64,000 nucleotides of DNA from Oxalobacteraceae bacterium (lineage in GTDB: Bacteria > Pseudomonadota > Gammaproteobacteria > Burkholderiales > Burkholderiaceae_D), in assembly GCA_021151485.1 (NCBI GenBank), contig JAGKXB010000009.1:15027-79026 (forward strand). Reading direction: 5' to 3'. A program made the position numbers and the translations under genes. Of the stretch, positions 35,505 to 40,438 are shown piece by piece; positions within the stretch are counted from its first letter, which is position 1, and each line of letters opens with the position of its first letter. The notes beneath the pieces were generated by a model, which saw nothing but the letters and a program-made list of their open reading frames with translations, did no database searches and was not told the DNA's origin.

Positions 35505-36521
35505 ATGCTATTCAACTTGTCCAAAAAAGCATTATTTGCCGGTGCGTTGATCACCAGCGCAGTTTTGCCACACGCCTTTGCAGCCGATACCACGCTGCTG
35601 AATGTTTCCTACGATCCAACCAGAGAGCTGTATCAAGACGTCAACACCGCTTTCGCTAAAAGCTGGAAAGCCAAAACAGGCGACAACGTACAAATCAAGC
35701 AATCGCATGGCGGTTCCGGCAAACAAGGACGTGCAGTGATCGATGGTTTGGAAGCCGACGTGGTAACTTTAGCGTTAGCCTATGACATTGACGCAATCGC
35801 TCAACACAATCTGATCGCCAAAGACTGGCAAAAACGTTTAGCACACAACAGCTCCCCTTACACCTCTACCATCGTCTTTTTGGTACGCAAGGGCAATCCT
35901 AAAGGCATCAAAGATTGGAATGACCTGGTCAAACCTGGTGTTTCGGTCATCACACCGAATCCAAAAACATCTGGCGGCGCACGCTGGAACCATTTGGCAG
36001 CTTGGGGTTATGCCTTGAAACAACCTGGTGCGACTGAAGCAACGGCTAAAGAATTCATCAAAAAATTGTACAAAAACGTGCCGGTATTGGATTCCGGCGC
36101 CCGCGGCGCGACCACAACCTTCGTTGAGCGCGGCATCGGCGACGTATTAATCGCATGGGAAAACGAAGCTTTCTTGGCAATTAAAGAATTAGGCCCTGAA
36201 AAAGTAGAAATCGTTTCACCATCCATCAGTATCCTGGCTGAACCACCTGTCGCTGTCGTTGATAAAGTCGCTGACAAACGCGGCACCCGTAAAGTGGCAC
36301 AGGCTTATTTGAATTTCTTGTACACCGAAGAAGCACAAGAGTTGATTGCGAAGAATTACTACCGTCCAACATTAGAAAAAACGGCGAAGAAGTATGCAAA
36401 AGAGTTTCCAAAGATCAAGCTGTTTACCATAGCGCAGGTTTCTGGTGACTGGGCTAAGGCGCAAAAAACACATTTTGCGGATGGTGGTGTGTTTGATCAG
36501 GTTTATCAGCCAAGTAAGTAA
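35505..36521 (+). CDS. sbp: Periplasmic sulfate-binding protein
   Basis: 338 residues with a signal peptide (cleavage after HAFA). It matches the Sbp/CysP family: LLNVSYDPTRELYQDVN, SHGGSGKQGRAVIDGLEADV, LVRKGNPKGIKDW and GGARWNHLAAWGYAL. It binds sulfate for the CysUWA importer, which is not in the window. GGAG is well placed before ATG 35505. It heads the sulfur island with serine acetyltransferase, encapsulin and cysteine desulfurase. Orphan status here leaves open whether it serves a general sulfate importer. Confidence 0.95.
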   Translation: MLFNLSKKALFAGALITSAVLPHAFAADTTLLNVSYDPTRELYQDVNTAFAKSWKAKTGDNVQIKQSHGGSGKQGRAVIDGLEADVVTLALAYDIDAIAQHNLIAKDWQKRLAHNSSPYTSTIVFLVRKGNPKGIKDWNDLVKPGVSVITPNPKTSGGARWNHLAAWGYALKQPGATEATAKEFIKKLYKNVPVLDSGARGATTTFVERGIGDVLIAWENEAFLAIKELGPEKVEIVSPSISILAEPPVAVVDKVADKRGTRKVAQAYLNFLYTEEAQELIAKNYYRPTLEKTAKKYAKEFPKIKLFTIAQVSGDWAKAQKTHFADGGVFDQVYQPSK

Positions 36522-36545
36522 GAATAGCGCTACGCGAAATGAACG

Positions 36546-36649
36546 CACTGGATTCCCGCCTTCGCGGGAATGACGGTAATACGGGAAGTAGTTATCACCA
36601 AATACGTTAAAAACCGTCATCCCCGAGTGCTTTAGTCGGGGATCCAGTA
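36546..36649. repeat. Composite palindromic repeat, copy C (split)
   Basis: Two pieces: 36546-36576 (CACTGGATTCCCGC ... GCGGGAATGACGG) and 36613-36649 (CCGTCATCCCCGAG ... CGGGGATCCAGTAC). It looks like two half-elements in opposite order to the other copies, between the sulfate-binding and serine acetyltransferase genes. Confidence 0.85.
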
Positions 36650-36695
36650 CTCCCCCCTCGTGCGAAGCACGCCAATCTTAAAACGGCAAAAAGGA

Positions 36696-37778: not shown

Positions 37779-37848
37779 GAAATTAAGGCTAATGGACAAT
37801 CTTGGATCAACAATCCCATCAATCATTAACCCAACAGGAACCATCGAT

Positions 37849-38778
37849 ATGACACAACCAACCCATCCAATCCAATCTCAAACAGCCCTAACCGATGCCG
37901 GCGCGCGCGGCTTGGCGATTGCCAACCGTACCGTGCCGCAAATGTCGCGCATTACCCCACGCTGGCTGACGCATCTACTACATTGGGTGCCGCTCGATTC
38001 CGGTATTTATCGCGTCAACCGCGTCAAAGAAGGCGCGACCGTCAATGTTGATTGCTCCCAACGTGACGAACGCGTGCTGCCAGAAACCTTCGTCGATTAC
38101 GTAGAAAACCCACGCGAATACCAACTCAGCGCCGTCACCACCGTGGTGGAAGTGCATACCCGTATTTCTGATCTGTACAGCAATCCATACAACCAAATCG
38201 CCGAGCAATTGCGTTTAACGATAGAAATCATCAAAGAACGCCAGGAAAGCGAACTCATCAACAATAAAGAATACGGCCTGCTGCACAGCGTGGTCCCCAG
38301 CCAGCGCATCAAAACTCGTACTGGTGCGCCAACGCCGGATGACATGGATGAATTGATTACCAAAGTCTGGAAAGAGCCCGGCTTCTTCTTAGCGCATCCG
38401 CAAGCGATTGCTGCGTTTGGCCGCGAATGTACCCGCCGTGGTGTGCCACCACCAACTGTTTCTTTATTCGGTTCCCAATTTTTGACCTGGCGCGGTTTGC
38501 CGATTTTCCCTTGCGACAAATTGGAAATTGAAAATGGAAAAACCAACATCCTACTGATACGCACGGGTGAAAGCCGTCAGGGCGTAGTTGGATTATTTCA
38601 ACCCAATTTGCCCGGCGGCGAAGGCAATCCTGGTTTGGCAGTGCGCTTTATGGGCATCAACCAAAAAGCCATCGCGTCTTATTTGGTTTCTCTTTATTGC
38701 TCATTAGCCGTATTAACTGATGATGCCATCGCAGTTTTAGAAGGCGTAGAAGTAGGTAAATACCATGAGTACAAATAA
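37849..38778 (+). CDS. Family 2A encapsulin shell protein (SrpI-type)
   Basis: 309 residues with the HK97-fold encapsulin family 2 signature: an N-terminal arm of ~40 residues, then TVPQMSRITPRWLTHLLHWV, GIYRVNRVKEGA and YQLSAVTTVVEVHTRISDLY, and a C-terminal half with FLTWRGLPIFPCDKL and RTGESRQGVVGLFQPNLPGG. No cyclic-nucleotide-binding insertion is present, which points to subtype 2A, not 2B. Such shells form ~60-subunit nanocompartments that house cysteine desulfurase. Start ATG 37849 is supported by AGGA at 9 nt; 19 upstream codons are repeat flank. Its end overlaps the desulfurase start by 14 bp. Confidence 0.93.
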   Translation: MTQPTHPIQSQTALTDAGARGLAIANRTVPQMSRITPRWLTHLLHWVPLDSGIYRVNRVKEGATVNVDCSQRDERVLPETFVDYVENPREYQLSAVTTVVEVHTRISDLYSNPYNQIAEQLRLTIEIIKERQESELINNKEYGLLHSVVPSQRIKTRTGAPTPDDMDELITKVWKEPGFFLAHPQAIAAFGRECTRRGVPPPTVSLFGSQFLTWRGLPIFPCDKLEIENGKTNILLIRTGESRQGVVGLFQPNLPGGEGNPGLAVRFMGINQKAIASYLVSLYCSLAVLTDDAIAVLEGVEVGKYHEYK

Positions 38779-40438
38779 TCTAGAAAACATGGGTTTGCCG
38801 GATATCAACGTCCTGACGCGCATGGCAAATGAATTGTTTTCGGCGCTGCCATCTTCAGGATCGGAAGGATTGACTGCATTACCCATCGCCACGTTACCAA
38901 ACGTGCAAGCACCGGCAGCGTTGCCGCAAAGCGGTTTTCCTGTGGCAACCAATGCGGTGACTGCAAGCGCGCCAGCAATTCCGGCTGGCTTGCCTTTTAG
39001 CGGTGTGGCACCGGCGGATTTTGGTTTGCCCAGCGAACAAGAATTATCAAGACTGCTGGTGCCAAGAAACTTTCACTCGCCTTCCGTCCTCACTAGTCAA
39101 GCCACTCAGGCGGCATCGTTTTATTTTTTAGATCAAAACACACCACGTCAGGCTGGCATCCAAGTACCTGGCTCACCAGCACCCAACTGGCAAGCCAGCG
39201 CGACGCCGATGTCGGCACCGTTTGACATCAATCAAGTGCGACGGGATTTTCCCATCTTGCAAGAACGCGTCAACGGGCGGCCTTTGGTATGGCTGGACAA
39301 CGCGGCAACCACGCACAAACCACAGTGTGTGATTGATCGTTTGAAGTATTTCTACCAGCATGAAAATTCCAACATCCACCGCGCCGCGCATGAATTGGCA
39401 GCACGTGCCAGTGATGCGTATGAAAGCGCCAGAGAAAAAGTGCGTGGATTTTTGAATGCCGCTTCCTCGAACGAAATCATCTTCGTACGTGGTGCCACTG
39501 AAGCCATCAATCTGGTCGCGCAAAGCTGGGGCCGGCAACATATCAGCAAAGATGATGAAATCATCATCAGCTGGCTAGAACATCACGCCAACATCGTGCC
39601 ATGGCAGCAATTGTGTGCAGAAAAAGGCGCTAAGCTGAAAGTCATTCCCGTCGATGACAATGGCCAGATATTGCTGGATGAATACGCCAAATTGTTGAGC
39701 AACAAAACCAAGTTGGTTTCGTTCACCCAAGTATCCAATGCGCTCGGCACCATTACGCCCGTCAAACAGATGGTGGAAATGGCGCACAACGCAGGCGCCA
39801 AAGTGCTGGTCGATGGCGCGCAAGCGGTGTCGCACCTACGTGCTGATGTGCAACATTTGAACTGCGACTGGTACGTTTTCTCCGGTCATAAGGTATTCGG
39901 CCCAACTGGTATCGGTGTGTTGTATGGAAAAGAAGCACTGCTGAATCAAATGCCACCCTGGCAAGGTGGCGGCAATATGATCAAGGATGTGCGTTTTGAG
40001 CATACCGAATACCACCCAGCCCCCGCACGTTTTGAAGCAGGCACTGGCAATATCGCCGATGCGGTTGGATTGGGTGCGGCGATTGATTACGTCAATCGAA
40101 TCGGCATTGACAATATTCACCAATACGAGCATCAGCTGTTGGAGTACGCCACGGGTTTGCTAAAAAGCATCCCGGGATTACGCCTGATCGGCACGGCGCC
40201 AGACAAAGCCAGCGTTTTGTCGTTCGTACTAGAAGGTTTTACAACAGTAGAAGTTGGCACCGCGCTGAGCAAAGAAGGCATCGCCGTGCGTTCTGGCCAC
40301 CACTGCGCGCAACCGATTTTGCGTCGTTTTGGCCAAGAAAGCACGGTACGGCCATCACTCGCGTTTTATAACAACCATGCCGATGTGGATGCCTTAGTTG
40401 CAACGCTACGGCGTATTCAAAGTGGACGTAGTTTTTAA
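38765..40438 (+). CDS. SufS-like cysteine desulfurase with N-terminal encapsulin cargo-loading tail
   Basis: 557 residues. Residues 1-~160 are Ala/Pro/Ser-rich and probably disordered, with short hydrophobic motifs (GLPDINVLTRMANELF, ADFGLPSEQELSRLL) typical of the targeting tails that dock cargo inside family 2A shells. From ~160 it is a full class II aminotransferase-fold desulfurase: FPILQERVNGRPLVWLDNAA, PLP lysine K376 in SGHKVFGPTGIG, and catalytic C514 in RSGHHCAQP. It abstracts sulfur from cysteine as persulfide. Ordinary SufS is ~400-410 residues, so the extension is the oddity. Translation is probably coupled with the shell gene by a 14-bp overlap; a terminator follows. Confidence 0.95.
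   Translation: MSTNNLENMGLPDINVLTRMANELFSALPSSGSEGLTALPIATLPNVQAPAALPQSGFPVATNAVTASAPAIPAGLPFSGVAPADFGLPSEQELSRLLVPRNFHSPSVLTSQATQAASFYFLDQNTPRQAGIQVPGSPAPNWQASATPMSAPFDINQVRRDFPILQERVNGRPLVWLDNAATTHKPQCVIDRLKYFYQHENSNIHRAAHELAARASDAYESAREKVRGFLNAASSNEIIFVRGATEAINLVAQSWGRQHISKDDEIIISWLEHHANIVPWQQLCAEKGAKLKVIPVDDNGQILLDEYAKLLSNKTKLVSFTQVSNALGTITPVKQMVEMAHNAGAKVLVDGAQAVSHLRADVQHLNCDWYVFSGHKVFGPTGIGVLYGKEALLNQMPPWQGGGNMIKDVRFEHTEYHPAPARFEAGTGNIADAVGLGAAIDYVNRIGIDNIHQYEHQLLEYATGLLKSIPGLRLIGTAPDKASVLSFVLEGFTTVEVGTALSKEGIAVRSGHHCAQPILRRFGQESTVRPSLAFYNNHADVDALVATLRRIQSGRSF

What the first reader, a model, noticed from the sequence alone, without database searches (positions are those of the whole stretch)
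35505..40438. Sulfur island with a family 2A encapsulin, tailed cysteine desulfurase, serine acetyltransferase and sulfate-binding protein
Seen: an SrpI-type shell gene overlaps a SufS-like desulfurase by 14 bp; the desulfurase has ~160 extra disordered N-terminal residues; a serine acetyltransferase and a sulfate-binding protein lie just upstream on the same strand, and a strong terminator closes the unit. Known: family 2A encapsulins package cysteine desulfurase through such tails and often sit beside serine acetyltransferases (SrpH). Inferred: the shell stores or buffers sulfur taken from cysteine that is made with the help of the neighbouring genes. The direct linkage to a periplasmic sulfate-binding protein and the presence in this betaproteobacterial context deserve attention.
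Basis: partly seen in the sequence, partly recalled or inferred. Interest (0 to 1): 0.85.

Follow-up and report, generated by a model that had tools for sequence, protein, structure and literature searches.

The report
Sulfur-storing protein shell beside sulfate uptake
The stretch encodes a known kind of bacterial protein shell that packages a sulfur-releasing enzyme, here next to a gene for catching sulfate from outside the cell; the shell is ordinary, but this pairing with sulfate uptake recurs in a good part of the related bacteria examined.

Summary
Confirmed: four same-strand genes at 35505-40438 encode a sulfate-binding protein, an EpsC-type serine acetyltransferase (SAT), a family 2A encapsulin shell and a tailed SufS-type cysteine desulfurase (CyD), closed by an intrinsic terminator. 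Shell and cargo pass the curated cut-offs for "family 2A encapsulin" and "2A cargo cysteine desulfurase"; the tail carries counterparts of both published CyD-tail motifs. This is a new member of a known, common system: 53 of 195 genomes of the window's family match the shell model.

The sulfate-binding gene is the only one found in the genome; permease genes lie on another contig. Its linkage is absent around the two closest relatives that could be examined, but recurs elsewhere: 16 of 44 sampled 2A shells lie within 10 kb of a sulfate-binding gene (chance 0.44; IscS control 0 of 38), with at least 14 changes on the shell tree. In Nitrosomonas-like genomes shell and cargo sit inside the importer gene cluster. 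I found no report of this linkage in the papers held.

Sulfur storage is inferred from the family, not shown. Co-transcription is unsettled: both upstream gaps hold dispersed palindromic repeats.

The parts
35505..36521 (+). sbp: periplasmic sulfate/thiosulfate-binding protein, the only TIGR00971 match in the genome; cysT-cysW-cysA-cysB lie on contig C71 with no sbp beside them
   Evidence: TIGR00971 494.5 bits; single match in G000; importer genes on C71
36546..36648 (.). dispersed palindromic (REP-like) repeats between sbp and SAT
   Evidence: 43 matches of the gap in the genome, itself included, mostly to two 39-bp cores; the gap folds at -48.3 kcal/mol, z -2.5
36660..37655 (+). EpsC/SrpH-like serine O-acetyltransferase; likely start 36696
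   Evidence: NF041874 162.7 bits, cut-off 150; ATG at 36696 lines up with L177; the name SrpH is recalled
37682..37779 (.). second palindromic repeat, between SAT and shell
   Evidence: copy at C51:52770-52804 = window 37744-37778; extent from the fold, -55.1 kcal/mol, z -4.4
37792..38778 (+). family 2A encapsulin shell protein (SrpI-like); likely start 37849 (309 aa)
   Evidence: NF041162 523.9 bits, PF19307 357.9 bits; PDB 6x8m SrpI 503.8 bits
38765..40438 (+). CyD: SufS-type cysteine desulfurase with N-terminal cargo tail (about residues 1-151); starts inside the shell gene (14-bp overlap)
   Evidence: NF041166 896.1 bits; best PDB matches begin at residues 147-157; tail motifs LTRMANELFS and AASFYFLDQ
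40459..40495 (+). intrinsic terminator closing the unit
   Evidence: 14-bp stem, 9-nt loop, T-rich 3' arm; -18.6 kcal/mol, z -4.5

Best explanation
A family 2A encapsulin nanocompartment. The shell protein self-assembles into an icosahedral particle; the disordered N-terminal tail of CyD docks inside, so that the desulfurase is packaged and takes sulfur from cysteine, leaving alanine; the sulfur is held in the particle (persulfide, polysulfide or elemental sulfur) rather than passed to Fe-S assembly. The SAT makes O-acetylserine for cysteine synthesis and so feeds the cargo. The sulfate-binding protein, the only one found in the genome, serves the CysTWA importer encoded elsewhere. The island thus joins sulfate capture, cysteine precursor and sulfur buffer, probably under a shared sulfur-status control. 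Shown here: family membership, tail motifs, gene order, single-copy sbp, no SufE match, recurrence of importer linkage. Inferred: assembly, packaging, storage, feeding, co-regulation.
For: Shell and cargo pass curated 2A models. Both tail motifs reported for most SrpI-associated CyDs (PMC8049743, section 4 part 1 read) have counterparts; in 20000 shuffles of the first 152 residues my two motif expressions appear 1 and 2 times. A start codon giving the same 14-bp shell-CyD overlap exists in 46 of 123 loci, window included. Of 9 class-V aminotransferase matches in the genome 3 are strong: CyD, an IscS-like gene in what reads as an iscR-S-U-A-hscBA cluster, and a SerC-like gene. No SufE match, while SufE rings in 5 of 14 control genomes. 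Two PAPS-reductase-family matches. sbp within 10 kb of the shell in 16 of 44 genomes (expected 0.44) against 0 of 38 for IscS. Literature: CyD is packaged through its tail and shell and cargo rise on sulfate starvation in S. elongatus; polysulfide storage is one of two models offered; a 2025 paper lists cysteine desulfurase encapsulins under sulfur storage (PMC12407261, passages).
Against: No assembly, packaging or sulfur content was measured. S. elongatus knockouts of shell and CyD had no growth defect, so the benefit is unclear. 28 of the 44 sampled shells have no sbp within 10 kb. In the window's own shell group the linkage is not conserved: L001 (91% shell identity) has none in 7.6 kb upstream and 2.5 kb downstream, and in G052 (L177) sbp is about 14 kb away on the other strand. 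Palindromic repeats separate sbp, SAT and shell. The window's sbp promoter has no significant copy of the box found near related operons. The tail motif expressions hit only 63 and 40 of 123 loci.
Confidence: 0.75

Rival explanations
1. The compartment is a sulfur-mobilising device: encapsulated CyD delivers sulfur to a particular acceptor (Fe-S or thio-cofactor synthesis) when sulfate is scarce, instead of storing it.
For: The S. elongatus system is raised in sulfate starvation, and delivery to carriers is one of the two models offered. Many 2A operons carry a rhodanese, an acceptor type.
Against: No rhodanese was found within 4 kb of the window's shell and no SufE match in the genome; Fe-S assembly has its own IscS-like cluster. 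Rhodanese marks one shell clade, to which the window does not belong.
Confidence: 0.15
2. The sulfate-binding gene is an incidental neighbour: a housekeeping importer gene that landed beside a SAT-shell-CyD cassette, with its own promoter and no functional tie.
For: Linkage absent around L001 and L177; 174-bp gap with dispersed repeats; a single-copy sbp must sit somewhere.
Against: sbp lies within 10 kb of 2A shells in 16 of 44 genomes against 0.44 expected; IscS 0 of 38. Importer linkage changes at least 14 times on the shell tree and appears in several gene orders.
Confidence: 0.3
3. Decayed or non-assembling remnant of a phage capsid.
For: HK97-type shells share ancestry with phage capsids.
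Against: Intact ORFs, high-scoring match to solved 2A shells over nearly full length, shell-cargo coupling seen across phyla.
Confidence: 0.02

Closest known systems
SrpI/CyD encapsulin of Synechococcus elongatus PCC 7942 (family 2A; PDB 6x8m, 6x8t; PMC8049743)
   Same: Shell family, tailed SufS-type cargo with both tail motifs, neighbouring sulfur genes
   Different: Window has a solo sulfate-binding gene upstream and a 14-bp shell-CyD overlap; the S. elongatus copy is on a plasmid and its gene order was not compared here
Sulfur-storage 2A encapsulin of Benisch, Andreas and Giessen 2024 (doi 10.1126/sciadv.adk9345; paper not held; citation seen, content recalled)
   Same: Shell plus tailed cysteine desulfurase; storage of elemental sulfur (recalled)
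   Different: Not compared in detail
Rhodanese-type 2A operons of related genomes (32 of 39 well-flanked family loci, 22 of 36 well-flanked sample loci; e.g. L133, L164, L191, L200)
   Same: SAT-shell-CyD order
   Different: Carry a rhodanese before SAT and form a separate shell clade; the window lacks it
Importer-embedded 2A clusters of Nitrosomonas-like genomes (L060, L064, L067, L206, L223)
   Same: 2A shell and CyD linked to a sulfate-binding gene; no rhodanese found
   Different: There shell-CyD sit between an EAL gene and cysT-cysW-cysA, with SAT after cysA; the window has only sbp, with cysTWAB elsewhere
Hyphomicrobiales loci L045, L050, L059, L077
   Same: Order sbp-SAT-shell(-CyD) on one strand (L045 ends inside CyD, L077 has about 1 kb between sbp and SAT)
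   Different: sbp only 54-55% identical; distant shell clade

Membership tests
Family 2A encapsulin shell | Passes curated 2A shell model | tested here: met
   NF041162 523.9 bits, cut-off 380; PF19307 357.9 bits, cut-off 22.8
Family 2A encapsulin shell | No cyclic-nucleotide-binding domain inserted (distinguishes 2A from 2B) | tested here: met
   Only PF19307 found in Pfam; 2A model scores 94 bits above the 2B model, although the 2B model also passes its cut-off of 400 (429.4)
Family 2A encapsulin shell | Self-assembles into an icosahedral particle | not testable with these tools
   Only kinship to solved SrpI (503.8 bits)
2A cargo cysteine desulfurase (CyD) | SufS-type desulfurase domain with cargo-model score | tested here: met
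   NF041166 896.1 bits, cut-off 800; SufS TIGR01979 574.7, cut-off 475.1
2A cargo cysteine desulfurase (CyD) | N-terminal tail with the two published motifs | tested here: met
   LTRMANELFS and AASFYFLDQ against LARLANEFFS and AASPYYFLDG; shuffle control. My strict expressions find motif 1 in 63, motif 2 in 40 and both in 23 of 123 loci, so they are not universal in this form
2A cargo cysteine desulfurase (CyD) | Tail-dependent packaging and activity inside the shell | not testable with these tools
   No complex prediction or experiment available
Sulfate/thiosulfate ABC-importer binding protein | Passes TIGR00971 | tested here: met
   494.5 bits, cut-off 155.5
Serine O-acetyltransferase | Passes a curated SAT equivalog model | tested here: met
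   EpsC NF041874 162.7, cut-off 150; not CysE TIGR01172 172.2, cut-off 210.65
Rhodanese-type 2A operon | Rhodanese gene next to SAT/shell | tested here: not met
   None within 4 kb of the window shell by tblastn with one rhodanese query

The most novel reading that the evidence does not exclude
The 2A encapsulin is a working part of the sulfate-acquisition system in many Proteobacteria: capture, import, cysteine precursor and an intracellular sulfur reservoir form one module, to the point that in Nitrosomonas-like bacteria the compartment pair is embedded in the sulfate importer cluster, and in the window's small genome the only sulfate-binding protein found is tied to it. Importer-linked and rhodanese-linked clusters would be two routes for the stored sulfur.
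Probability: 0.4. Interest if true: 0.6.

Novelty: new member of a known kind. Interest (0 to 1): 0.4.

Why it matters
The physiological role of 2A encapsulins is still open: two models are offered and S. elongatus knockouts gave no growth phenotype. A repeated physical tie to the sulfate importer points to sulfate supply as the condition in which to look for one, and names genomes (Nitrosomonas-like, Methylobacillus) where importer and compartment lie so close that co-expression can be tested directly. The window itself adds a case in which the only sulfate-binding protein found in the genome is the neighbour.

Tried and rejected
Phage capsid remnant: rejected on family scores and cargo coupling. 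Family 2B: rejected, no inserted domain and lower score, although the 2B model also passes its own cut-off.

Rhodanese against importer as competing states: in the 36 of 44 sample loci with at least 6 kb on both sides the two look exclusive (3 both, 13 importer only, 19 rhodanese only, 1 neither; Fisher p 3e-6), but rhodanese needs only one change on the shell tree and none of the 10 independent pairs differs in it. I drop exclusion as a finding: it is one clade's habit.

Shared promoter box: TATTC[GT]TTT lies upstream of 18 of 94 operon-first genes against 6 of 284 control upstreams, and ATTCGTT before 28 of 94 (expected 5.0). But composition differs (G+C 0.50 vs 0.53), some sbp and SAT upstreams are the same divergent gap, ATTCGTT is not enriched before sbp (3 of 50, expected 3.1), and the window's best copy (1 mismatch) is reached or beaten in 178 of 500 shuffles. 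Not used as evidence for the window. The regulator was not identified.

Rows dropped or limits before counts; the four 2B-like phylum hits (G222, G331, G337, G414) were left out, as were the four genomes already; G779, whose shell is below the cut-off, was kept; G875, with a piece of sbp at the contig end 3.2 kb from the shell, counts as not linked; for IscS one place per genome was used (second over-cut-off copies in G631 and G917 lie 93 kb from, or on another contig than, any sbp). Its chance model treats genomes as independent and positions as uniform; shared ancestry makes its P values too small, so genus counts are given; 123 loci had both genes usable; the overlap count asks only whether a start codon stands at that place; 139 of 169 shells, kept if flanks were at least 6 kb on both sides, or if an importer gene was found, or L001 and L178; the second rule favours importer rows. 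It is a quick tree with 46 of 128 inner branches under 80 support, mixing 80 loci chosen for similarity to the window with the taxonomic samples, and some species occur twice (L067 and L206 are identical shells).

Unbiased neighbour clustering was spoiled in part by antisense ORFs in high-G+C loci and left out 18 loci whose shell ORF was not matched; tblastn with named queries was used instead. A text search for SAT starts returned nothing; the alignment replaced it, for L177 alone. No structure prediction was run: close relatives are solved.
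Full report
What is there. The four ORFs are present at the stated places on the + strand, with a 14-bp overlap of the last two. They are a sulfate-binding protein (TIGR00971 494.5 bits, cut-off 155.5), an EpsC-type SAT (162.7, cut-off 150; below the CysE cut-off), a family 2A encapsulin shell (NF041162 523.9, cut-off 380) and a 2A cargo cysteine desulfurase (NF041166 896.1, cut-off 800). 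The shell matches solved SrpI (6x8m, 503.8 bits, residues 30-328). The SufS-type part of CyD begins near residue 152, leaving a tail of about 150 residues. The tail holds LTRMANELFS and AASFYFLDQ, counterparts of the two motifs reported for most SrpI-associated CyDs (PMC8049743, section 4 part 1 read). In 20000 shuffles of the first 152 residues the two expressions occur 1 and 2 times, though among 123 related loci they hit only 63 and 40. From the sequence the shell start with a plausible ribosome site is 37849; the SAT start that lines up with L177 is 36696. A 14-pair hairpin with a T-rich 3' arm closes the unit.

One operon? Shell and CyD are closely coupled: a start codon giving the 14-bp overlap exists in 46 of 123 loci, window included, among them Proteobacteria and Bacteroidota. 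The gaps sbp-SAT (174 bp) and SAT-shell (193 bp) hold palindromic repeats; the first gap has 43 matches in the genome, itself and the second gap included. They fold strongly (z -2.5 and -4.4), and no terminator-like or promoter-like + strand site was listed in them. Co-transcription from sbp is therefore possible but not shown.

The rest of the genome. The window lies in a 2.18 Mb genome of 88 contigs. One sulfate-binding gene was found, the window's. CysT and CysW (TIGR00969 over cut-off), with CysA- and CysB-like genes named by resemblance, lie together on C71 with no sbp beside them. A second SAT-like gene lies on C30. Of 9 class-V aminotransferase matches the three strong ones are CyD, an IscS-like gene in what reads as iscR-S-U-A-hscBA and a SerC-like gene; the other six score 27.1 bits or less and were not examined as desulfurases. 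No SufE match, while SufE rings in 5 of 14 control genomes. Two PAPS-reductase-family matches are present. So imported sulfate should use this sbp unless another transporter type exists, and CyD has no SufE partner that I could find. This fits a cargo whose sulfur stays in the shell; it does not prove it.

How common. Matches to the 2A shell model: 53 of 195 genomes of the same family, 43 of 399 of the order, 19 of 397 of the phylum. A few look 2B-like, with split matches in frames of 471-520 aa (G170, G222, G331, G337, G414; the reading as 2B is mine), and one is split over two frames (G138). Presence in this lineage is ordinary. A large survey reports 1281 2A operons with CyD, with Proteobacteria the richest phylum (813), and SAT and rhodanese as the most enriched accessories (PMC8346489, passages seen).

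The sulfate link. For 44 genomes (39 from the order sample, 5 from the phylum sample; the four 2B-like phylum hits and genomes left out), 16 have a sulfate-binding gene within 10 kb of the shell, in 11 of 34 genera; 0.44 genomes are expected for random positions; 28 do not. The same count for IscS is 0 of the 38 genomes with an over-cut-off IscS. Among the 53 family genomes (50 with a match) the positions show four within 10 kb (G000, G036, G067, G068), read by eye and not tested. Of the 44 fetched loci, 17 have sbp, or cysT with cysW, near the shell, in 7 family codes and 12 of 34 genera. Eight of the 44 had less than 6 kb on one side and are counted as they are.

Gene orders seen. (a) sbp-DUF2325-EAL-shell-CyD-cysT-cysW-cysA-SAT in Nitrosomonas-like L060, L064, L067, L206 and L223; L211 and L216 likewise but without a SAT hit; L070 is cut off after cysT. 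DUF2325 and EAL were named by Pfam in L060 and by similarity in the others. (b) cysA-cysW-cysT-sbp diverging from SAT-shell-CyD: L062, L072, L073, L075, L076, L078, L190, L195, L197, L224, L226, and L010 and L013; an EAL gene between sbp and cysT was seen in L073 (Pfam) and in L190, L195, L197, L224 and L226 (tblastn), and was not tested in the other Methylophilaceae loci. (c) sbp-cysTWA in line before SAT-shell-CyD (L150, L155). (d) importer genes after CyD, in line (L193, L215, L225) or converging (L162, L196); L189 has sbp-EAL before SAT-shell-CyD and a second sbp-cysTWA after it; L214 and L229 have cysT and cysW diverging. (e) sbp-SAT-shell-CyD in Hyphomicrobiales (L045, cut off inside CyD; L050; L059; L077 with about 1 kb between sbp and SAT), the order of the window. 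On a quick tree of 139 shells importer linkage needs at least 14 changes; rhodanese needs 1. The count cannot tell gains from losses.

Against a special meaning in the window. The window's shell groups with L001, L177 and L178 (100*). L001 has no importer gene in 7.6 kb upstream and 2.5 kb downstream. L177 has none in about 9.5 kb either side; its genome's sbp (80% identical) is about 14 kb away, opposite strand. L178 is too short to tell. So the window's sbp neighbour is a local arrangement in its own group, within a pattern that recurs more widely.

Mechanism. Established for relatives, not for the window: the shell assembles, CyD is packaged through its tail, its activity is enhanced inside, and the pair rises on sulfate starvation (PMC8049743: abstract, section 4 part 1, section 15 and passages seen). 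Storage of sulfur is one of two models there, and a later paper cites cysteine desulfurase encapsulins under sulfur storage (PMC12407261, passages); the 2024 paper it cites was not held. My reading: sulfate capture and SAT raise cysteine, and CyD in the shell banks the sulfur. Mobilisation in scarcity is the main rival.

Literature check. Searches for encapsulin with sulfate plus ABC transporter plus operon, with SrpI plus sulfate, with sulfate transport, and with Nitrosomonas list no paper that I could see describing the importer linkage. PMC8049743 does name sulfate-transport genes, as part of the starvation response. Listings alone were seen for all papers except PMC8049743, PMC8346489 and PMC12407261. 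The library is partial, the search is by exact words (encapsulin with 'serine acetyltransferase' found nothing, though PMC8346489 writes 'Serine O-acetyltransferases'), and supplements were not open to me, so the linkage may be tabulated somewhere.

Verdict. The island is a sound new member of the family 2A CyD system. The part worth keeping is the recurrent tie between these compartments and the sulfate importer.

Noticed in passing
upstream of rhodanese-type loci (e.g. L133, L136, L164, L167, L175) and of the divergent sbp/SAT gaps of Methylophilaceae (e.g. L062, L073, L197): Box TATTC[GT]TTT upstream of 18 of 94 encapsulin-operon first genes against 6 of 284 control upstreams; regulator unknown, not significant in the window.
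   Followed up: partly
window 40530-42614 (+): 694-aa alanine-rich protein directly after the terminator with no Pfam or NCBIfam match.
   Followed up: no
window 42747-43484 and 43432-44130 (-): Two overlapping ORFs on one strand; the first has no Pfam match. They may be parts of one gene or neighbours; not examined further.
   Followed up: no
window 33417-35228 (-): 603-aa SbmA/BacA-like ABC transporter (PF06472, PF05992, PF00005) upstream on the other strand; no match over my 200-bit limit near the other shells scanned.
   Followed up: partly
L060:8661-8999 and 9064-9885; L073:3484-4365: DUF2325 and EAL-domain proteins accompany sulfate-importer genes in these clusters.
   Followed up: partly
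G138:C1:5010721-5011604: Shell model match split over two frames in one family member, suggesting a broken 2A shell gene.
   Followed up: no
shell tree: Bacteroidota shells are about 80% identical to the window's (e.g. L003, L005) and fall with its group in one starred set of 45 rows, as expected from horizontal transfer.
   Followed up: partly
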